From NCBI RefSeq assembly GCF_013284035.1, contig NZ_CP054141.1, forward strand, positions 2,170,001-2,234,000: a DNA stretch of 64,000 bases, read 5' to 3'. Each line of letters begins with the position of its first letter. Position 1 is the first letter of the stretch. The position numbers and the translations under genes were made by a program. Origin of the DNA: Flavobacterium sp. M31R6 (GTDB taxonomy: Bacteria > Bacteroidota > Bacteroidia > Flavobacteriales > Flavobacteriaceae). The notes under the pieces are model-generated. The model ran no database searches. It saw only the letters and a program-made list of their open reading frames with translations, and was not told where the DNA came from. Shown here one piece after another: positions 47,535 to 64,000 of the stretch.

Positions 47535-47622
47535 GGAGAAATGGCAGAGCGGTCGAATGCGGCAGTCTTGAAAACTGTTGACTGTAACAGGTCCGGGGGT
47601 TCGAATCCCTCTTTCTCCGCCA
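47535..47622 (+). tRNA. tRNA-Ser (UGA)
   Basis: 88 bases including the encoded CCA. Acceptor stem GGAGAAA/TTTCTCC, D-arm AGCGGTCGAATGCGGCA, anticodon loop CTTGAAA with TGA, a long variable arm typical of serine tRNA, and T-arm GGGGGTTCGAATCCCTC. Its 3' end is a usual integration target; an integrase gene follows 260 bases later. Confidence 0.96.
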
Positions 47623-47652
47623 GTAGAAGTTTCAAAAGAAACTTTAAAAATC

Positions 47653-54950: not shown

Positions 54951-55110
54951 AATTTTAAATTTTTAGTTAATAATTATTTGAAAAATTGTATTTTTGTTTA
55001 AATACATAGCAAGTAAGCAATAGATTGTACCGTACCGAACTAACGGGAATTGTATCTCACAAAAGCGGGCTTGTTTTTTACCATAGCCTTTTTTTTAAAA
55101 GAATTTTAAA

Positions 55111-55118
55111 TACCTTTG
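55111..55118 (+). promoter_or_regulatory. -7 box immediately upstream of the XRE gene
   Basis: TACCTTTG fits TAnnTTTG and ends 4 bases before the ATG at 55123. Transcription would begin at or next to the start codon, giving a leaderless message. Confidence 0.45.
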
Positions 55119-55122
55119 AGTT

Positions 55123-55518
55123 ATGAATACAGCAACAAAACCAAAACATATTGGCAGGAATATCAGCCGAATTAGAGAGCTTAGAGGTATGAAACAAGAA
55201 GCATTGGCTAACGCTATTGGTGTAAGCCAACAATCTGTTTCTAATATTGAAGGAAGTGAAACTGTTGACGAAGAAAAACTACAAGCAATTGCTGAAGTGT
55301 TAGGCGTTTCAGCTGAGGCAATTAAAAACTATAGCGATGAAACGGTATTAAATGTTATAAATAATACTTTTACTAGTCATGATAGTTCAACAATTAATGC
55401 AATTAATATTCAACCAAATTTTAATCCCCTAGATAAAGTTGTTGAGTTATACGAACGTTTAGTTCAGACTGAAAAAGATAAAGTCGAGTATTTGGAAAAA
55501 TTACTAAAAGGAAAATAA
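55123..55518 (+). CDS. XRE-family transcriptional regulator
   Basis: 131 residues. The HTH lies at about 12-65: ISRIRELRGMKQEALANAIGVSQQSVSNIEG, a standard Cro/C1 domain. A middle linker rich in Asn/Thr and a C-terminal coiled coil (VVELYERLVQTEKDKVEYLEKLL) suggest dimerization. It is divergent from the HEPN-like block and may repress it or itself. A hairpin terminator follows directly, separating it from the defence-like cassette. Confidence 0.85.
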   Translation: MNTATKPKHIGRNISRIRELRGMKQEALANAIGVSQQSVSNIEGSETVDEEKLQAIAEVLGVSAEAIKNYSDETVLNVINNTFTSHDSSTINAINIQPNFNPLDKVVELYERLVQTEKDKVEYLEKLLKGK

Positions 55519-55546
55519 TCTTTTATAAAACATATATTAATTCAAA

Positions 55547-55578
55547 GAAAGAGACCCTCACGAGTCTCTTTCCTGTTT
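55547..55578 (+). terminator. Terminator after the XRE gene
   Basis: A 9-bp stem GAAAGAGAC/GTCTCTTTC with an 8-base loop, followed by CTGTTTT. The remaining spacer to 55784 is AT-rich with no gene. Confidence 0.7.
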
Positions 55579-55784
55579 TAGGCTATTGTTAAATTTTACT
55601 ACAGATCATTACAAATAAAACTAACACAATGGATAAAACTCTGTGTTTTTCCCTTACACCCTACACCCTAAATTTATTTTCACTATTTTTCACTTATTTT
55701 CACCAGTTTACGGTTTTCCACAAAGAACTATAGATTACTTTTTTGTAAGTTTGTAAGAATATGTCTTTTTTAAAATAAATTGAT

Positions 55785-56783
55785 TTGTCTACAAATAAAC
55801 ATGCTATAATCAGATATCAAACTTTAGATAGGTGCTTCCGGAATTCAGGGAGAAATTACGCTATTGACGATCTTGTAACGGAATGCAATAAATCAATTTA
55901 TGAATATTCAGGAATGGATGATGGAGTGAAGAAAAGACAGCTTTACGATGATATTAGATTTATGGAAAGTGATCAAGGTTGGAGCATAGAACTAAAAAAA
56001 GTAAAAGATGGTAGAAGAGTTTTTTACAAATATGAAAATTCTAACTTCTCTATTTCAAATCAACCATTAAATGAAACGGAAGCTAATCAACTTAGAGAAG
56101 CTTTATTAACATTAGATAGATTCAAAGGTTTACCACAATATAATTGGATTAATGAAATAAATGCAAGATTAGAATCTTCATTTAATTTAAAACAACAAAA
56201 CGATATTATAATCAGTTTTGAACAAAATGAGTACTTAAAAGGATTAGAATATATTCCAGAAATTTATAATGCAATCCTATATAAAAAAGTATTACATATT
56301 GAGTATAAGAATTTCAAAACTGAAAATTCAACTACTATTATAATCAATCCATATTATCTAAAGCAATATAACATGCGCTGGTTTTTATTTGGAAAATCGC
56401 ATGGCTATGAGACTATCACTAATTTGGCATTAGATCGAATAGAAAAAATTGCTTCAGGCAGTGAAGAATATATGGAAACAGATATCAATTTTAGCGAATA
56501 TTTTGAAGACGTTATTGGAGTTACAATTCCAAATGAAAATATTGTCGATATTGTTCTCAAAGTGGATAAAACATTAATTCCTTACATAACAACAAAACCA
56601 TTACATGGATCTCAAAAAATCAAAGAAAAAGATAATGATATTGAAGTTCACTTAAAATTAATTCCTAATTATGAATTAGAAACATTGATTTTATCTTTTG
56701 GCGAAAAAATTCAAGTTTTAAAGCCAATTACTCTAGTTGAAAAAGTAGAGGATAGAATCTATAAAATGATGAACAATTATTAA
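55785..56783 (+). CDS. WYL-domain transcriptional regulator
   Basis: 332 residues, TTG start (no in-frame ATG upstream of the HTH). An N-terminal winged helix (about 8-85, with a DDIRFMESDQGWSIE-like turn) precedes a WYL domain at about 165-230: LHIEYKNFKTENS, INPYYLKQYNMRWFLFGKSHG and LALDRIEKI. A C-terminal extension (WCX) ends in EKVEDRIYKMM. WYL regulators commonly head phage-defence operons (BrxR, CapW) and release their operator on sensing a nucleic-acid or nucleotide signal. A palindrome lies directly after its stop codon, ahead of the methyltransferase gene. Confidence 0.85.
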   Translation: MSTNKHAIIRYQTLDRCFRNSGRNYAIDDLVTECNKSIYEYSGMDDGVKKRQLYDDIRFMESDQGWSIELKKVKDGRRVFYKYENSNFSISNQPLNETEANQLREALLTLDRFKGLPQYNWINEINARLESSFNLKQQNDIIISFEQNEYLKGLEYIPEIYNAILYKKVLHIEYKNFKTENSTTIIINPYYLKQYNMRWFLFGKSHGYETITNLALDRIEKIASGSEEYMETDINFSEYFEDVIGVTIPNENIVDIVLKVDKTLIPYITTKPLHGSQKIKEKDNDIEVHLKLIPNYELETLILSFGEKIQVLKPITLVEKVEDRIYKMMNNY

Positions 56784-56798
56784 TGCACGTATAGTGCA
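56784..56798. promoter_or_regulatory. Candidate WYL-regulator operator
   Basis: TGCAC-GTATA-GTGCA is a perfect inverted repeat that begins at the base after the regulator's stop codon. It occupies the -33 region of the downstream TACATTTG box, where a bound repressor would block transcription. Confidence 0.5.
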
Positions 56799-56809
56799 CA
56801 AATACAATA

Positions 56810-56817
56810 TACATTTG
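56810..56817 (+). promoter_or_regulatory. -7 box of the methyltransferase gene
   Basis: TACATTTG, a full TAnnTTTG match, lies 20 bases before the ATG at 56838 and 11 bases after the palindrome. Confidence 0.5.
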
Positions 56818-56837
56818 CAAAGCAATTAGTAAAACAA

Positions 56838-59300
56838 ATGTTTATGTCAGATAAGTTAGGTATGGTAGATAATAAAATGATAAATGAAATTTCAGAAAAA
56901 ATTTGGTCATCTTTTAATATTTTAAGAGGTGAGATTAGTTCTGATGATTTTCATTTGGTATTATTTTTATTAACTATTAAGAGAATGGGTTTTAAATCAG
57001 AGTTTTTTTCAAATTCTATGGAAAACCAAGTTGCTCTTCTAGATTTTTTAAGTGACTATGACAATGTTAATGCTTCAAATATTATTGATGTTTATGGAGT
57101 TTATGATTCTTTGATCTATCGCTTACCAAACGAAAAACTCATACAATTATATTTCGTTATTGATTCTATAGATTCTAAAATATTGGATGACAATTTCTTA
57201 GAAATATTTGATTATATTTTATATAAGTTCTTACAATCTCTTGGTAAATTTTCTGGCGAATTTATTTTACCTATTGAGTTAAGTAGATTTATGATAAATA
57301 TTGCTAATCTTAAACATAAAGGAAGTATTTATAATCCTTTTGCTGGAGCAACTTCTTTCGGAGTTTTAGCTCCTGAAAACAGTAATTACATAGGTCAAGA
57401 AATTAATCAAACAACCTGGGTTGTAGGGGTGTTAAGATTATTAGCCACAAATTCATTTCATTCCAAATCATTGATTTTAGGAGATTCTATTAAACAATGG
57501 AATCCAAACAGCTTAAAGTATGATTTAATAATTGCATCACCACCTTTTGGAATGAGATTACCTTTTGGTGTTTCAGGAAAATGGGGAACAATCAGAAACT
57601 TTGAAAATTTTGCTATCGAAAAAGGGTTAGATGATTTAAAGAATGATGGTAAACTGGTTATTTTAGTTCCAGAAAGCTTCCTGTTTTCTAGTGGACAAAT
57701 TGCAAATTTGAGATACCATTTAATTGATCAAGATTTAATAGAATCGGTTATTTCATTTCCAAATGGAATTTTGCATCATACTGCTATCAAAACTTCTGTT
57801 TTAGTGATTAACAAATCTAAAAAAAATAAGGGATTTATTAATTTCATTATTGCTGATGATTTTGTAATTAATGGTGTGAATAGATCTAAAATTCTTAAAG
57901 ATTTAGATTTTGTTGAAACTATTTCAAAAGGAAAAGAAAGTAGTTTTTTAAGGAAAATTTCTATTGAAGAGGTTAAATCTCAGGATAGAGTTTTAGATTG
58001 TCAAAGATATTTTTTAGAAAATTTTGATGGTGTTAAATTAAATGAATTTGTAACTAGAATAAGGGGACAAAGATTCAATTCGGGTGAAAATGGTAAGTGG
58101 GTTAAAATTAAAGACCTAAAGGATGACAACCATAATTTTTATTTAGATGTTGATAAAGTTGAAGAAATTCCATTTATCAGACAAGTAAGTAAAATTGAAG
58201 AGAACTGTATATTGATTTCTAAAATTGGTAGAACTTTGAAACCTACTTTTTTTGAATTTAGTGGCGAATCTATTTATATTAATGATGATATTTTAGCATT
58301 AAGAGTAGATAAGAAAATTGCATTACCAATTTTTGTTGTAATGGAATTCTACAAAGATTATGTTGTAGAACAAGCTAATTCATTTAGAAAAGGTGCTGTT
58401 ATACCATTTTTAAAAGTTTCAGATATTTTATCCATAAAATTTGATTTACCTAATCTGCTTGAACAGCAAAAACAATTAGATTATTTTATTGAATTGACCT
58501 CTAAACTATATGATTTAGAGCAACAAAGAGACAATCTAAAGAGTGGTTTTAAAAAATATCAATTTGACGAATTTGCTTCGTTAAAGCATTCATTAGGAGC
58601 ACCAAGGCAAAATATTTTATCAAATTCAAAAACTTTAATTAGGTTTTTTGAGAATGACAATTCAAATGAATTTAAAGTAGTTAGTGCCAAGTTTTTTGAG
58701 CATTATGGTATTGAATTGCAAGAAGTTTTTAATCAATTTAAAAATGATATTAATCAAATAAGTACCATTCTTGAAAAAGGAGAAAATGGTCTGTTAGTTA
58801 ATGATTATAAGAAAGAACTAATTTCTTTATTTGAAATTAATAAATTTATAAATGGGCTATCAGATAATGGTTTTAATTTTAAAATTAGACCCAAACCTTT
58901 AAGCGAAGTTGATACTATTGAGAAATATTTTGAGTGTAATTTAACATTGTTGAAAATCCTTTTTGATAATATTTTTACAAACGCAAATAAATACGCTTTC
59001 GATAGTTTCGAAGAAACAAATGAAGTAGTCATTGAATTAGCTTTAATTGGTAATCAATTAGAGGTTTCTATAAAAAATAATGGTAGGCCTTTCCCTAAAA
59101 AATATAGTAAGGAGAAGTTTATTTCGAAATTTAGCACGAATAACACTAATAAAGGAAAAGGTATTGGTGGTTACGATATTAATAGAATAGCCGCATATTT
59201 TGAAAATGAGGATTGGACTATTGACTTAAATACAAATCCATTATATCCAGTAGTTTTTAAATTTTTATTCCCTATAAAAAATAGTGTAAATGAGCAATAA
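56838..59300 (+). CDS. N6-adenine-type DNA methyltransferase fused to a specificity domain and a histidine-kinase module
   Basis: 820 residues. The HsdM-like part has a helical N-terminus (1-150), SAM motif I IYNPFAGATSFG (residue 166 on) and motif IV ASPPFG (234-237; the usual NPPF Asn is Ser). Residues about 395-555 look like one type I specificity (HsdS) half: LNEFVTRIRGQRF and a closing PFLKVSDILSIKFDLP. Then come a coiled coil (about 555-575), an H-box-like ASLKHSLGAPRQNI with His584, and a GHKL ATPase with N-box DNIFTNANKYAF (near 710) and G-box NKGKGIGGYDINR (near 775). It starts an operon with a receiver protein, overlapping it by 11 bases. The likely role is DNA modification or sensing linked to phosphotransfer. 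Confidence 0.8.
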   Translation: MFMSDKLGMVDNKMINEISEKIWSSFNILRGEISSDDFHLVLFLLTIKRMGFKSEFFSNSMENQVALLDFLSDYDNVNASNIIDVYGVYDSLIYRLPNEKLIQLYFVIDSIDSKILDDNFLEIFDYILYKFLQSLGKFSGEFILPIELSRFMINIANLKHKGSIYNPFAGATSFGVLAPENSNYIGQEINQTTWVVGVLRLLATNSFHSKSLILGDSIKQWNPNSLKYDLIIASPPFGMRLPFGVSGKWGTIRNFENFAIEKGLDDLKNDGKLVILVPESFLFSSGQIANLRYHLIDQDLIESVISFPNGILHHTAIKTSVLVINKSKKNKGFINFIIADDFVINGVNRSKILKDLDFVETISKGKESSFLRKISIEEVKSQDRVLDCQRYFLENFDGVKLNEFVTRIRGQRFNSGENGKWVKIKDLKDDNHNFYLDVDKVEEIPFIRQVSKIEENCILISKIGRTLKPTFFEFSGESIYINDDILALRVDKKIALPIFVVMEFYKDYVVEQANSFRKGAVIPFLKVSDILSIKFDLPNLLEQQKQLDYFIELTSKLYDLEQQRDNLKSGFKKYQFDEFASLKHSLGAPRQNILSNSKTLIRFFENDNSNEFKVVSAKFFEHYGIELQEVFNQFKNDINQISTILEKGENGLLVNDYKKELISLFEINKFINGLSDNGFNFKIRPKPLSEVDTIEKYFECNLTLLKILFDNIFTNANKYAFDSFEETNEVVIELALIGNQLEVSIKNNGRPFPKKYSKEKFISKFSTNNTNKGKGIGGYDINRIAAYFENEDWTIDLNTNPLYPVVFKFLFPIKNSVNEQ

Positions 59301-60456
59301 AGTATATCATATTCTTTGGGTAGATGATGAACATGAAGTCATGCCTGCATTTAAGCGACTAGCATTAGATTATGATTTAAAATTAGTGCCTTTTAAATCA
59401 TTAGAAGCTGGAATGGCTGAACTAGAAAAAAATCTTGTTTTATATGATGGGGTTTTACTAGATGCAAAATTCTTTGAGAAAGAAGATGATATTCCAGACA
59501 CAGAAGATACAGATTATGTTCATAGAGCAAAGGAGCGTATTTTACAACTTCCAAAGAAATTTGATATTCATATTCTAACAGGTCAAGCCGAAGCTTTTGA
59601 TAGTCGAACTTTTAAACAAGCTTTTACGAAAGTGTTCCGTAAAGGTATTTCTGATGATGAAGATGCCATGTTTAATAGTTTGAAAGTTACAGCTGAGGGT
59701 CAGTTAGATTTTCAAATAAGAAATGAATACAAACGAGTATTTGAAATTGGTAATGAAAAATATTTAGGCTCAAAAATCTATGAACCAATAATCAATCTAT
59801 TGAAACAAATTAAGTCAACAAATGATTTTGAACCAACCAAGGATAATTTGTTGCCATTAAGGAAAATTATTGAAAATAGTTTTGATAAATTATTTGAATT
59901 GGGAATAATTCCAGAAGAAATCTACAAAGCTGGGTTAAATCCAACAGTTAAATTTTTGAGTAATAACAAAAATAATTCTGGATATAGTGCAGTTAAAGAT
60001 TTTATGCATCCATTTATGGCCTATTTCTTTGACAATCTAGTTTTTATTACCCAAGACAGTCAGCATGATAAAAAAGGATTAAAACTAAATGTGGATGAAT
60101 ATATTTCAAATATAAAATCACCTTATTTATTTAAGAGTTTAGTTTTTCAATTACTTGATTATTTGATTTGGTTAAAACAGTTTATTGACGAAAATTCTAA
60201 TCCAGAGGTTAATTCAAATTTGTGGACTAAAGAGAATATTGTTGAAATAGCTATAACTGAAACCGTTCTAAGAGGTCAATTACAACAAGATGAAAGACGT
60301 AATTACTACATTGGTCAGTGTTTATTTCCTTACACTAAAGTGGATGGAAAATATAATATTGGTGATACGTTAGAAATCACAAAAACAACACTAAACGATA
60401 AAACAACAAAAGATAAATATCCATTATTTGTTTTTAGTTTCAACAAACCTGACTAG
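59290..60456 (+). CDS. Receiver-domain protein with unknown output domain
   Basis: 388 residues, start inside the end of the methyltransferase-kinase gene. Residues 1-125 have the full receiver set: the acidic pair Asp12-Asp13 in ILWVDDEHE, phosphoacceptor Asp58 in VLLDAKFFE, Thr97 in HILTGQAEA and Lys118 in KVFRKG. The remaining 260 residues are helical with no known DNA-binding or enzyme motif. It should accept phosphate from the fused kinase module and pass a state change to an effector. This assignment is strong for the receiver and open for the output. Confidence 0.82.
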   Translation: MSNKVYHILWVDDEHEVMPAFKRLALDYDLKLVPFKSLEAGMAELEKNLVLYDGVLLDAKFFEKEDDIPDTEDTDYVHRAKERILQLPKKFDIHILTGQAEAFDSRTFKQAFTKVFRKGISDDEDAMFNSLKVTAEGQLDFQIRNEYKRVFEIGNEKYLGSKIYEPIINLLKQIKSTNDFEPTKDNLLPLRKIIENSFDKLFELGIIPEEIYKAGLNPTVKFLSNNKNNSGYSAVKDFMHPFMAYFFDNLVFITQDSQHDKKGLKLNVDEYISNIKSPYLFKSLVFQLLDYLIWLKQFIDENSNPEVNSNLWTKENIVEIAITETVLRGQLQQDERRNYYIGQCLFPYTKVDGKYNIGDTLEITKTTLNDKTTKDKYPLFVFSFNKPD

Positions 60457-60482
60457 CGCACATCTGCCGCACACATTAATTA

Positions 60483-60490
60483 TAGATTTG
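60483..60490 (+). promoter_or_regulatory. Internal -7 box before the STY4851-like gene
   Basis: TAGATTTG fits TAnnTTTG and lies in the 50-base gap. Just upstream, GCGCACA and CGCACAC form direct GCACA repeats, similar to half of the palindrome at 56784. Confidence 0.35.
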
Positions 60491-60506
60491 ATGAAAATTG
60501 AAATAT

Positions 60507-63500
60507 ATGAGCGAATTTTACAAAATCTTAAAAACACGAAAGCTTGAATTTCATTCAGGTCAGCCAGTGTGGAAATATTCTATTTCTGATTTAGAGTTTA
60601 ATCAACTAAAAGAGCGATTTAAAATTGTTCAACGTTTTTCTGAACTTGACTCAAGGGATTGTGCAATCTATTTTGCAGAATGGTGGAAAAGAATTTTCAA
60701 TGGTGGATATCCATCAAAAGATGAAATTTATAATTCATTAGGTTCACAAAATTTGTGTTTTGATGTTAATGACTTTTATGAGTCAGCAAAAAAAGGTGGA
60801 AATCTTTTAAATTATAAATGGATTAAAATTCAAAATACTCATTACCTCAAAACCTTATTATTGCAAGGTGGCCTTCCGTTAAAACATATACAAAATAATA
60901 GCGGTAAGTACAGGGATTTTCTTTTAAAAATTATCCATTTAAACCCTAGCTCAATTGAAGATTTTTCTTCTAATACTGAATTAACTAGTTTTCTTCCTAA
61001 GTCTAGTCAAAATGAAATTATTTATAGTAGTTGCCTCGAAATTGTTCGTGCCGTATTAGATAATGATGAAAATGAACTGTTAAGTTTTAGAACTAATGCA
61101 TATTTAAAACAAATTACCGAGGAGTTAATTATTGAAAGAGATAAGGTTAGAAAAAAAAATAATGCTATTAAATTTAAATGGAATTTTAATTCCAAAAGCA
61201 AAACTTTTTTTCTCAGTACTATTATTACTTCAAAAATAGGATTTGAAGAACTGAATTACATTTTAGATGATCAAATTGATGATTTTCATAATGAATATAA
61301 ATTATTCGTTGGTGTAGATTTAATTGCTAAGATGATAAAAAGAAATAATGAAACATACAAAGTAATCCAGTTTAAAGATTTTGTCAGTTTTAAAGAAGAT
61401 TTTGATACTGAAATTTATGTAATTGATAGTTCTGACAAAATTTATTATGCTAATCATTTACTCTATTCCAGATTAAACTTGGATTTTCCAACATTATGGG
61501 CATCAGGTAATAATGAAAATTTTGTTTTAGAAAAATCTAGACACACAAATAATAATTATGGTTACGTATTATCAAATGATGCTTTTTCAATAGATGGAAA
61601 TTTTGAAGAAAAAATAGTAATAGAGATAAATAGTAAAGCTTTCTCTATTATAAAATTTCAAAATGAAATCAAATTAAAGAAGCCTGATGGTAATACAATA
61701 AAATTCAAAACAAATACGGAGAACATATTTGAATGGACAATACTATGTGAAAAACCAAACTGGTTAGTCAAAGGAAACTTAAACGTTGTAAAAGATAGTT
61801 TAAGAATACTTGTTTACGACAAGAATGGACAAAGGATAAATAATCCGAATATAGAATGGAAGTCAGTTAATAAAAATAATTGGAATTCAAAAAACACTGC
61901 ATTAGAATTAGGAACTTTAGATGTCAAAATATCTCATGATGGGATTAATGAATTTGATAGAGTTTTTAATATTGGTAATTTATGTTTGTTGAGTTGTTCA
62001 GATCATAATAATCCTCAATTAACTGTTAATAACAATTCTTTTATTTTGGAAATATATAAATCTGAATTTTTTGATTTTAACATAAACCAAAATAAAATTA
62101 ATTTTATTATAATAAATCCCGCCAAATTTCCTGCTTCAATTAAAACTAGAATTAGAGTTAATAATCAAAGTTTCGGTTTAATTGCTAATGTTCAATCACC
62201 TTTTCAAGGTGTTCTTTTGGTTGACCAAAATGAAAATATCATTGAGGAAGATGAAATATATTTGGATAAAATAAAAGGTTGGCGATTAATTACAAATTCT
62301 CACAGTAAAGAGTACGAAGTAAGAATTTCGAATAATAAAAATCATGAAATTATAATATCAAAAAAGATTAAAAGAAATATAAAACCTTTATTTGAGTTTT
62401 ATGATACTTTTAAATCACTATTTCAACTTTTTAATATTATCGATTCTGATAATTTCTTAAAAATGGATATTTGTGAAATTCTCCCGAATAGAAGAAGCAA
62501 AACAATTAAAAGTTATAGTATCAAGCAGTTTTCTGAAACAATAAAATGGGAAATAAATTCTGAAAATGTTATAAAATTTACTGAAATCGAAAGTGTAGAT
62601 ATTTCAAGCAGTGTGTATGCTTTACCAATAGATTGTGATTTAGAGTATATCGATAAGATCGAAATAAAAAAAGATTCAGACTTTTATTCAATTAATACAA
62701 CTAACGTCAATAAATTTATTCTCTTCTCTGATAAAAATTCAAAATTCAAAATTAAACCCGAGTTTATCTCAGTTAATCCCGAAAATGAATTAACTACAAT
62801 TGAGGATAGAAATATTCGAATAATGAACTATTCAAAGCTGCTTTTAACAGAAGATTTTAGTTGTGATATATGGAACAAGTTTTGGGTTTATTATTATTTA
62901 TGTAAAGAAAATGATCTGCCTTTTGCAACATTTGATATTATAAAAGCAATTACAACATCATCCGAATTAGCAGCAAAGGCATTTACTTTTTTATCGTTAA
63001 AATTTGATTCTGGTGAATACAAATTTTCAGGAAATGATTTTATTGAATTAGAAAATGACTTAGGATTCTCTTTCCATTGGGTTAAACTATCTGATTGGGA
63101 GAATATCTGTCAAATTTATCCAGATACTTATGGAGCTATTGCCATTATGTTTAGTTTGAATTGGAATATGCTTAAAGTTTGTCTACTACAAAATGGTAAA
63201 AACAACAATTTTGTTTTTCATGCAGAATTGAACAATGTTAGAGAACGTTTAGGTGAAAGGGTATTAAATCAACTACCTTCTTATGAAATAGAAAAAGATA
63301 GAAATAAATATGTTAAACCTATTCCGCAAAAACAATGGAATAATCAAGTTAATATTCTTGTTATTGCACCTTTAACGGTTGCATCATCTATTTCGGGTAT
63401 TAATACAGGTCTTTGGCATGTCAATGGGGATAATTTCAGAAGAAGAATTAGGTATGTAGAAGACCTTGATAAAAAGTGGTATGAAGAATCATTAATTTAT

Positions 63501-63512
63501 TATTTAAATTAA
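60507..63512 (+). CDS. STY4851/ECs_5259-family large protein, probable helicase partner
   Basis: 1001 residues from ATG 60507 (a TTG 9 bases upstream is open too). The N-terminus VWKYSISDLEFNQLKERF, CAIYFAEWWKRIFNGGYPS (about 52-70) and HYLKTLLLQGGLPL (about 110) match what I recall of the STY4851/ECs_5259 (YjiT-like) family, which sits beside large DUF1998-type helicases in defence islands. The middle is beta-rich with many Asn and Lys; the end reads VNILVIAPLTVASSISGIN. No nuclease or ATPase motif is visible. The next gene is a helicase 8 bases away, as in the known pairs. Confidence 0.7.
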   Translation: MSEFYKILKTRKLEFHSGQPVWKYSISDLEFNQLKERFKIVQRFSELDSRDCAIYFAEWWKRIFNGGYPSKDEIYNSLGSQNLCFDVNDFYESAKKGGNLLNYKWIKIQNTHYLKTLLLQGGLPLKHIQNNSGKYRDFLLKIIHLNPSSIEDFSSNTELTSFLPKSSQNEIIYSSCLEIVRAVLDNDENELLSFRTNAYLKQITEELIIERDKVRKKNNAIKFKWNFNSKSKTFFLSTIITSKIGFEELNYILDDQIDDFHNEYKLFVGVDLIAKMIKRNNETYKVIQFKDFVSFKEDFDTEIYVIDSSDKIYYANHLLYSRLNLDFPTLWASGNNENFVLEKSRHTNNNYGYVLSNDAFSIDGNFEEKIVIEINSKAFSIIKFQNEIKLKKPDGNTIKFKTNTENIFEWTILCEKPNWLVKGNLNVVKDSLRILVYDKNGQRINNPNIEWKSVNKNNWNSKNTALELGTLDVKISHDGINEFDRVFNIGNLCLLSCSDHNNPQLTVNNNSFILEIYKSEFFDFNINQNKINFIIINPAKFPASIKTRIRVNNQSFGLIANVQSPFQGVLLVDQNENIIEEDEIYLDKIKGWRLITNSHSKEYEVRISNNKNHEIIISKKIKRNIKPLFEFYDTFKSLFQLFNIIDSDNFLKMDICEILPNRRSKTIKSYSIKQFSETIKWEINSENVIKFTEIESVDISSSVYALPIDCDLEYIDKIEIKKDSDFYSINTTNVNKFILFSDKNSKFKIKPEFISVNPENELTTIEDRNIRIMNYSKLLLTEDFSCDIWNKFWVYYYLCKENDLPFATFDIIKAITTSSELAAKAFTFLSLKFDSGEYKFSGNDFIELENDLGFSFHWVKLSDWENICQIYPDTYGAIAIMFSLNWNMLKVCLLQNGKNNNFVFHAELNNVRERLGERVLNQLPSYEIEKDRNKYVKPIPQKQWNNQVNILVIAPLTVASSISGINTGLWHVNGDNFRRRIRYVEDLDKKWYEESLIYYLN

Positions 63513-63520
63513 ACTAATAT

Positions 63521-64000
63521 ATGAGCCAAGAAATTAAATTTACAAAAATATATAGCGAAATTCAAGAAAGGTTAAAAGATTCTATTTTATCACTTTGGGC
63601 AACGGGGGACGCTCAATTTCAAGACTATTTAACAAATTTGTTTGAAGAAGAAAAATTGTTAGCCGAACCAGTTTTTCAAAATACTTTCCCTTGGACACCT
63701 GCAAAAGAAACTTTTGGGGATCTATCTAATTTATTTGATAACAAATTTATCAGCAAACTAGATAAAATTAAAGGTGAATATGAGTTTCCTAAAAATAGAA
63801 ATCCATATGAACATCAAATTAGAAGTTGGAATGCCCTTTTAAAAGAAAAAAAGTCTATTGCCGTTACAACAGGAACAGGCTCAGGTAAAACTGAATGTTT
63901 TATGTTGCCCGTTTTACAGGATTTGTATGAGAACTGTCAAGATGAACCAGGTATAAGAGCCATATTCTTATATCCTTTAAATGCATTAATTGGTAGTCAG
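63521..64000 (+). CDS. DEAD/DEAH-box helicase, N-terminal part, cut by the window
   Basis: The first 160 residues of a longer protein, from ATG 63521. A Q-like motif is NPYEHQIRSW (95-104), the Walker A is TTGTGSGKTECF (117-128), and motif Ia is FLYPLNALIGSQ (149-160). This wording resembles the large DUF1998-carrying helicases of defence systems (DruE- or DrmA-like). It follows the STY4851-like gene by 8 bases and is surely in the same operon. What lies beyond is unseen. Confidence 0.85.
   Translation, partial: MSQEIKFTKIYSEIQERLKDSILSLWATGDAQFQDYLTNLFEEEKLLAEPVFQNTFPWTPAKETFGDLSNLFDNKFISKLDKIKGEYEFPKNRNPYEHQIRSWNALLKEKKSIAVTTGTGSGKTECFMLPVLQDLYENCQDEPGIRAIFLYPLNALIGSQ

What the first reader, a model, noticed from the sequence alone, without database searches (positions are those of the whole stretch)
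55785..64000. Candidate new defence-type cassette: DNA methyltransferase wired to a two-component phosphorelay and a helicase pair
Seen: five rightward genes in the order WYL regulator, methyltransferase-specificity-kinase fusion, receiver protein, STY4851/ECs_5259-like protein, DEAD/DEAH helicase, with short gaps or overlaps, inside a tRNA-integrated island. Known: WYL regulators and STY4851-helicase pairs are typical of phage-defence loci; methylases mark self DNA. Inference: modification status or stalled modification may be turned into a phosphorylation signal that switches the helicase arm on. I do not know a described system with a histidine kinase and receiver joined to a methylase this way.
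Basis: partly seen in the sequence, partly recalled or inferred. Interest (0 to 1): 0.9.

Follow-up and report, generated by a model that had tools for sequence, protein, structure and literature searches.

The report
Methylase-fused kinase switch beside restriction operons
A pair of bacterial genes, one a DNA-methylase-like protein fused to a signalling kinase and the other its apparent receiver partner, sits as a movable two-gene unit beside different virus-defence gene sets, which suggests a DNA-sensing switch for immunity; its function has not been tested.

Summary
The five rightward genes are really there. The helicase pair is ordinary Druantia type III (DruE3 2484 bits, DruH3 101 bits), followed beyond the window by type I restriction-modification (RM) genes, in a 57-kb tRNA-Ser-integrated element. 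The new part is the two genes between the WYL regulator and DruH: an N6-methylase / recognition-domain / histidine-kinase fusion (MTHK) overlapping a receiver protein (REC). They are adjacent in all 48 loci read. They are not a Druantia part: DruH/DruE lie beside them in 4 of 48 loci, type I RM is the usual neighbour, and 5 of 6 genomes with full-length DruE3 among 299 same-family genomes lack REC. Kinase and receiver co-vary (r=0.95) but not with neighbouring HsdM/HsdS (r about 0). Kinase histidine and receiver aspartate are invariant, whereas methylase motif IV is non-canonical in 17 of 46 loci, and the recognition domain is conserved instead of hypervariable. Best reading: a modular DNA-reading two-component switch that licenses adjacent restriction effectors (confidence 0.5). 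Phosphotransfer, signal and output are inferred. Ten literature searches listed no description; one 2026 figure legend names a predicted HATPase/REC system that I could not inspect.

The parts
47535..47622 (+). tRNA-Ser (TGA anticodon), integration site of the island
   Evidence: ARAGORN
47603..47625 (+). left 23-bp direct repeat of the island; right copy at genome 2274773-2274795, outside the window
55785..56783 (+). WYL-WCX regulator, TTG start as listed
   Evidence: Pfam WYL 1.4e-12, WCX 6.3e-10
56838..59300 (+). MTHK: methylase - recognition domain - histidine kinase fusion, 820 aa
57168..58022 (+). MTHK methylase domain (residues 111-395); motif I NPFAGATS at 166-173, motif IV SPPF at 234-237
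58023..58472 (+). MTHK HsdS-like recognition domain (residues 396-545)
58473..58787 (+). coiled coil and DHp-like helices (residues 546-650) with putative phosphoacceptor His584 (codon 58587-58589)
   Evidence: conservation; helices in the model, where 571-593 and 640-651 have pLDDT under 50
58788..59282 (+). HATPase_c kinase domain (residues 651-815)
59290..60456 (+). REC: receiver protein, 388 aa; start overlaps the end of MTHK by 11 bp
59290..59709 (+). receiver domain (residues 1-140); phosphoacceptor Asp58 codon 59461-59463, Lys118
60223..60453 (+). C-terminal beta domain of REC (residues 312-388); OB/cold-shock-like in some relatives, missing in others
60498..63512 (+). DruH (Druantia type III), 1004 aa
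   Evidence: PADLOC DruH3 8e-30 over residues 9-870
63521..64000 (+). DruE (Druantia type III helicase), cut by the window end; complete, 1966 aa, at genome 2233521-2239421

Best explanation
MTHK and REC form a movable two-gene two-component switch, usually placed behind a WYL regulator and in front of a restriction-type defence operon (type I RM most often, Druantia III here). Anatomy, conservation, adjacency and modularity are shown. The rest is inferred: MTHK dimerises through its coiled-coil/DHp-like helices and uses its methylase fold and a fixed recognition domain to read a particular DNA site or its modification state; a change of that state (unmodified or invading DNA) drives ATP-dependent phosphorylation of His584; the phosphate passes to Asp58 of REC; phospho-REC, which has no recognisable DNA-binding output domain, licenses or restrains the adjacent effectors (HsdR, DUF2130, DruH/DruE), while the WYL protein sets transcription. 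In this island the switch would gate Druantia III and possibly the type I RM behind it.
For: MTHK and REC adjacent in 48 of 48 loci, spacing -25 to +6 bp in the 34 measured. Distances of HATPase and receiver correlate at r=0.95 (39 loci), against -0.01 with HsdM (28) and -0.16 with HsdS (29) of the same loci; HsdM with HsdS 0.84 (26). His584 and Asp58 invariant in 39 of 39 loci and in 7 of 7 divergent ones; a plasmid copy has a textbook HEIAGPL H-box. Methylase motif IV non-canonical in 11 of 39 and 6 of 7, against 0 of 26 in HsdM of the same loci. Recognition domain identity 0.476 (no pair under 0.3) against 0.191 for HsdS over the same 406 locus pairs. The next gene after REC is within 100 bp and is HsdM, DUF2130, DruH or HsdR in 25 of 35 loci.
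Against: No biochemistry. The DHp stretch is low-confidence in the model. In the close family the residue after the His is S or T, where canonical HisKA kinases as I recall have E or D. The C-terminal beta domain of REC is missing in several members (REC of 300-316 aa in L032, L045-L047, L058-L060), so it cannot be the common output. Loci L009, L016, L032, L047 and L059 have no recognised RM or Druantia gene next to the cassette. The focal motif IV (SPPF) is compatible with catalysis. Decoupling from HsdM/HsdS could reflect RM turnover in islands without functional coupling. The distance test does not correct for phylogeny.
Confidence: 0.5

Rival explanations
1. The cassette is a self-contained defence system (DNA reader, kinase, REC as effector) that only shares islands and promoters with RM and Druantia.
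For: Some cassettes have no RM or Druantia gene next to them (L009, L016, L032, L047, L059), and MTHK/REC evolve independently of HsdM/HsdS.
Against: The next gene is within 100 bp and of restriction/defence type in 25 of 35 loci, a tight operon link; REC shows no recognised effector domain.
Confidence: 0.2
2. The output is purely transcriptional: phospho-REC acts with or on the WYL regulator to derepress the operon, and the nucleases themselves are not touched.
For: WYL directly upstream in 28 of 34 loci and in 5 of 5 further family loci; WYL distances correlate moderately with receiver (0.51) and HsdM (0.35). CapK-CapS is a precedent for kinase control of immune operon transcription (PMC13373217, passages).
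Against: WYL also heads the five Druantia III loci that have no REC, so WYL does not need the cassette; some cassettes have no recognised WYL gene nearby (six of 34; L054, L060); REC has no recognised DNA-binding domain.
Confidence: 0.18
3. MTHK is simply an orphan methylase/modification enzyme (epigenetic mark or protection of the element), with a vestigial kinase.
For: Motif IV canonical in 122 of 152 homologues including the focal SPPF; methylase fold closest to PacII and other type I M subunits.
Against: Kinase residues are more conserved than methylase ones; 17 of 46 loci lack a canonical motif IV; the receiver gene always follows.
Confidence: 0.06
4. One reading: a dedicated five-gene system in which the phosphorelay is the specific on-switch of the helicase pair.
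For: Focal locus and L004 have identical gene order with short gaps.
Against: DruH/DruE beside the cassette in only 4 of 48 loci, upstream of it in two of those (L005, L022); 5 of 6 genomes with full-length DruE3 in the family sample have no REC.
Confidence: 0.06

Closest known systems
Druantia type III (DruH + DruE)
   Same: DruH and DruE of the window match the PADLOC type III models; five relatives in the family sample have WYL-DruH-DruE.
   Different: MTHK and REC stand between WYL and DruH; they were absent from those five loci.
Type I RM (HsdM/HsdS)
   Same: MTHK has an N6 methylase and an S-type recognition domain.
   Different: Both are in one chain fused to a kinase; NCBIfam hsdM 63.5 bits against a cut-off of 242.75; recognition domain conserved, motif I begins NPF (152 of 152) where HsdM of the same loci begins D (26 of 26).
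CapK-CapS (PMC13373217; passages seen)
   Same: A GHKL kinase and its substrate in front of diverse immune operons; 88 of 443 lie just downstream of a predicted R-M system; works as a DNA-state sensor (single-stranded DNA).
   Different: CapK phosphorylates a serine of a STAS-wHTH repressor; here a conserved His and a receiver Asp, with a methylase/recognition sensor.
CoCoNuT type I-B CnuA (PMC11090510; passages seen)
   Same: A receiver domain in a restriction-type defence operon.
   Different: REC is fused to a PYD/CARD-like and coiled-coil protein; no fused methylase-kinase partner mentioned in the passages seen.
Detocs (recalled, nothing read)
   Same: As I recall, a kinase and receiver proteins used in anti-phage defence.
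   Different: As I recall, a TPR-type sensor kinase and an effector receiver protein, no methylase.
Kinase/response regulator pair controlling CRISPR-Cas in Marinomonas (PMC8523701; search listing only)
   Same: Two-component control of a defence system.
   Different: Sensor architecture not seen by me.
HATPase/REC predicted system in DefensePredictor Fig. 6F (PMC13092281; legends and passages seen)
   Same: The legend lists HATPase and REC among the domains of predicted, unvalidated systems.
   Different: Unknown: the figure is not held, so I cannot tell whether it is this family.

Membership tests
Druantia type III | DruE helicase of the type III clade | tested here: met
   PDLC00036 DruE3, residues 4-1964, 2484 bits
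Druantia type III | DruH next to DruE | tested here: met
   PDLC00045 DruH3 8e-30 over 9-870, 8 bp before DruE
Druantia type III | MTHK/REC as components | tested here: not met
   no REC in 5 of 6 genomes with full-length DruE3; not seen in their loci
Type I RM M subunit (for MTHK) | hsdM equivalog score | tested here: not met
   TIGR00497 63.5 bits, cut-off 242.75
Two-component system | conserved phosphoacceptor His and N/G boxes in the kinase | tested here: met
   His584, N711, N715, G749, G775, G777 in 39 of 39 loci; His, both Asn and two G-box glycines in 7 of 7 divergent ones
Two-component system | receiver fold with acidic pocket, phosphoacceptor Asp and Lys | tested here: met
   D13, D58, K118 in 39 of 39 and 7 of 7; fold
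Two-component system | phosphotransfer between the two proteins | not testable with these tools
   only co-variation, r=0.95
CapK-CapS | STAS-wHTH substrate phosphorylated on serine | tested here: not met
   partner is a receiver-fold protein with no Pfam match at E<=0.1
DISARM | DrmA/DrmB as best-matching helicase components | tested here: not met
   helicase scores 2484 bits on DruE3 and 45 on DrmA
MADS | mad gene set | tested here: inconclusive
   no mad model among the 25 listed of 38 PADLOC matches of MTHK, nor among those of WYL, REC and DruH
TOTE conflict systems | S1/CSD-TOTE domain with TPR and TBP partners | tested here: inconclusive
   5 of 8 REC relatives match S1CSD-TOTE-2, one above cut-off; focal REC does not; TPR/TBP partners not searched for
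Detocs | DtcA/DtcB/DtcC | not tested
   known to me from recall only; no Detocs name appeared in the PADLOC output, but I did not check that the library holds it

The most novel reading that the evidence does not exclude
A DNA-modification-sensing two-component system: a methylase that has become a reader of DNA state signals through its fused histidine kinase to a receiver that post-translationally arms whichever restriction machine is plugged in behind it; an interchangeable phospho-switch for nucleases shared by type I RM, Druantia III and others in Bacteroidota.
Probability: 0.35. Interest if true: 0.87.

Novelty: new variant of a known kind. Interest (0 to 1): 0.68.

Why it matters
How restriction systems avoid cutting unmodified host DNA and are switched on only when needed is a long-standing question. 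A cassette that joins a DNA-modification fold to a phosphorelay and is swapped between unrelated restriction systems would be a direct molecular handle on it, and would show a DNA methylase used as a signalling sensor. A natural Druantia III operon without the cassette (L038, DruE 82% identical) makes a clean comparison possible.

Tried and rejected
Rejected: a Druantia-specific kinase arm; DISARM; a vestigial kinase on an orphan methylase. That methylation is needed across the family is disfavoured by motif IV; for the focal copy it stays open.

Led nowhere: REC scan of viral contigs (7 pattern matches, no relative) and of phage records (none). Plasmids: 3 Myroides records of equal length, one read. 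REC profile against PDB sequences: none at E<=0.01. Rfam on 55000-64000: none. Inverted repeats before WYL were short and not followed. The second structural look covered only residues 3-144 of REC well; its middle and C-terminal parts are barely tested. A search with the kinase part alone gave 40 hits, many on short contigs, and no clear other fusion partner; their contexts were not read.

Literature searches. None of their listings showed a methylase-kinase fusion with a receiver; one search matched 3,853 papers of which 15 were listed, so it tests little; most subscription papers are not in the library.

Counts and what was left out: 48 loci = focal + 34 + 5 + 7 + 1 plasmid. L043 has the same MTHK as L037 (tree), so about 47 are independent. 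The scan used two short peptide patterns, so it favours close relatives. L015 (MTHK in two frames) was left out of the 34-locus and 39-locus statistics. The 152 sequences are 34 loci plus 118 of the 120 listed hits, whose query was residues 400-820: that set is selected for similarity in recognition domain and kinase; the 39 loci and the 7 divergent ones, found through REC, are not. The motif IV reading of the 7 divergent ones depends on their alignment; 9 of 299 genomes matched; G127 (C-terminal piece), G035 and G281 (54-58 residue receiver pieces) and a second C-terminal match in G000 were not counted; 241 of 299 matched, nearly all weakly to other helicases; only the 6 end-to-end hits count as DruE3; 12 of 395 matched at E<=1e-10, three of them only the C-terminal domain.

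Full report
WHAT IS THERE. The window is bases 2170001-2234000 of a one-contig genome of 4,464,517 bases. The five ORFs of the finding exist with the stated order and strand. To the right the helicase is complete at 1966 aa and is followed by DUF2130, a 5'-nucleotidase family gene, HsdM and HsdS and an HsdR ORF that reaches L003:3315, whose start I did not fix. The nearest MTHK relatives on the tree, L004 and L005, are from Flavobacterium.

ISLAND. An 18-base stretch of the tRNA-Ser 3' end occurs exactly twice in the genome and extends to a 23-bp repeat. The copies lie about 57.2 kb apart, with a phage-type integrase gene just inside the right one. The same element carries an AbiEii-like gene, a DpdF-like helicase, an EVE-AAA protein beside a McrBC component, and a second methylase/specificity set.

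THE HELICASE PAIR IS KNOWN. DruE matches PADLOC DruE3 end to end (2484 bits), and DruH matches DruH3 over residues 9-870 at 8e-30. This is Druantia type III. [quoted passage not shown] PMC12458937 (abstract, two results sections and the figure legends read) classifies YprA helicases including Druantia; its main text does not contain the words kinase, receiver or HATPase.

TWO GENES THAT TRAVEL TOGETHER. A genome-collection scan gave 34 loci with REC, and all 34 have MTHK next to it (in L015 it is in two frames). Five further loci from same-family genomes (L043 has the same MTHK as L037), seven from a phylum-wide sample of 395 genomes and a Myroides plasmid add 13 of 13; with the focal locus, 48 of 48. 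Spacing in the 34 measured is -25 to +6 bp, and WYL is directly upstream in 28 of 34. In the five family loci WYL is adjacent in all. In the seven phylum loci it is adjacent on the same strand in one, adjacent but divergent in three, about 4 kb away in one and not recognised in two. In the phylum sample 9 of 395 genomes have REC, the focal one included.

NOT A DRUANTIA COMPONENT. DruH/DruE lie beside the cassette in 4 of 48 loci: focal, L004, L005 and L022. In the last two they are upstream of it. The four fall in two places on the MTHK tree. In 299 same-family genomes, REC occurs in 6 and end-to-end DruE3 in 6; only the focal genome has both. The five other Druantia III loci have a WYL gene upstream of DruH, adjacent in four and with a small ORF between in L040, and no MTHK or REC; four have type I RM genes downstream and L040 a GmrSD-like gene. 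The simplest reading is WYL-DruH-DruE as a basic operon with MTHK-REC as an optional insert.

MOSTLY BESIDE RESTRICTION. Of 35 loci (focal plus 34), genes of the HsdM, HsdS or HsdR clusters lie downstream on the same strand in 28 and only upstream in two (L013, L026). The next gene after REC is within 100 bp and is HsdM-type in 16, DUF2130 in 6, DruH in 2 and HsdR in 1. L008 and L015 end about 0.3 and 1 kb after REC; L009, L016 and L032 have no RM gene in the stretch read. Other neighbours in some of the loci match GmrSD, KAP NTPase, reverse transcriptase, Piwi and HerA families. Of the five family loci, three have RM genes downstream (L043, L045, L046), L044 has an HsdR upstream and HsdM pieces about 8 kb away, and L047 has none. 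Of the seven phylum loci, six have HsdM next and L059 has none. The plasmid has HsdM and HsdS next and HsdR further on.

CO-EVOLUTION. Pairwise distances over 39 loci: HATPase with receiver r=0.95, DHp region with receiver 0.94, methylase with recognition domain 0.92, methylase with receiver 0.82. HATPase with HsdM is -0.01 (28 loci) and with HsdS -0.16 (29); receiver with HsdM 0.04 and with HsdS -0.09. HsdM with HsdS is 0.84 (26). WYL is intermediate: 0.51 with receiver (33) and 0.35 with HsdM (24). The pair behaves as a unit that is reshuffled among RM systems. The test does not correct for phylogeny; HsdM/HsdS of the same loci are the control.

READER RATHER THAN WRITER. In 39 loci His584, N711, N715, G749, G775 and G777 of MTHK and D13, D58 and K118 of REC are invariant; other tallied positions vary slightly (K718 36 of 39, P589 35 of 39). 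Seven divergent loci keep the His, both asparagines, two G-box glycines, D58 and K118 in 7 of 7. Methylase motif IV ([NDS]PP[FYW]) is non-canonical in 11 of 39 loci, with at least 8 changes on the tree, and in 6 of the 7 divergent ones: 17 of 46, or 16 of 45 without the near-duplicate. The plasmid copy reads NPPL. HsdM of the same loci is NPPF or NPPY in 26 of 26. In a set of 152 homologues, which favours the kinase half because of how it was collected, His584 is 152 of 152 and motif IV canonical in 122. Motif I begins NPF in 152 of 152, where HsdM begins D in 26 of 26. The recognition domain has mean pairwise identity 0.476 with no pair under 0.3; HsdS over the same 406 locus pairs averages 0.191 with 90% under 0.3. 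A fixed recognition domain beside hypervariable HsdS is what one expects of a sensor. The focal motif IV, SPPF, is compatible with catalysis, so the focal protein may still methylate.

MECHANISM. Shown: domain content, conservation, adjacency, co-variation, modularity. Inferred: dimerisation, sensing of a DNA site or its modification, phosphotransfer from His584 to Asp58, and action of phospho-REC on neighbours. Weak points: low model confidence at the DHp stretch, and S or T after the His in the 152-sequence set, where canonical kinases as I recall have E or D. Divergent members do have an acid there: L058-L060 HD and the plasmid HE, in HEIAGPL.

RELATION TO KNOWN SYSTEMS. CapK-CapS (PMC13373217, passages) is the nearest functional parallel: a kinase and substrate in front of varied immune operons, answering to DNA damage, in 88 of 443 cases just downstream of a predicted R-M system. 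It uses a serine and a STAS-wHTH partner, so this is not a member. WYL regulators of the BrxR family are reported beside type IV and type I enzymes (PMC9122601, passages). A receiver domain occurs in CoCoNuT type I-B CnuA (PMC11090510, passages). Schlafen RNases fused to a minimal histidine kinase are reported beside BREX (PMC12839542, passages). Detocs is recalled only. The ten literature searches listed no paper describing this fusion. DefensePredictor (PMC13092281, legends) names HATPase and REC among predicted systems in a figure that I could not see, so earlier notice of this family cannot be excluded.

VERDICT. Observation confirmed; interpretation partly supported. The finding is better stated as a modular methylase-kinase/receiver cassette of Bacteroidota defence operons that here stands in front of Druantia III and a type I RM system.

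Noticed in passing
L003:16281-19948 and L053:500-5601 (right part of the same island, outside the window): A McrBC component beside an 877-aa EVE-AAA protein, and a second set of N6 methylase (725 aa), 515-aa protein of unknown family and S-like subunit on the - strand.
   Followed up: partly
L003:3338-7882: A 1514-aa helicase directly after HsdR that matches PADLOC DpdF models only in its helicase core; possibly another defence effector behind the type I RM.
   Followed up: partly
L061:2881-3165, L063:3194-3478 (also G464 and, with a stop, genome 2751427-2751675): The C-terminal beta domain of the focal REC resembles a small stand-alone protein encoded at a similar place in same-genus genomes, near a DnaJ-like gene; no Pfam match for it.
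   Followed up: partly
L018, L019, L022, L030, L036, L037 and L002:14488-15750: DUF2130 is the first gene after REC in six loci and follows DruE in the focal locus; its link to this cassette and to type I RM deserves a look.
   Followed up: no
L005 versus L002 and L004: A closely related cassette lies after DruE in L005 but before DruH in L002 and L004, so its place in one kind of operon has changed recently.
   Followed up: partly
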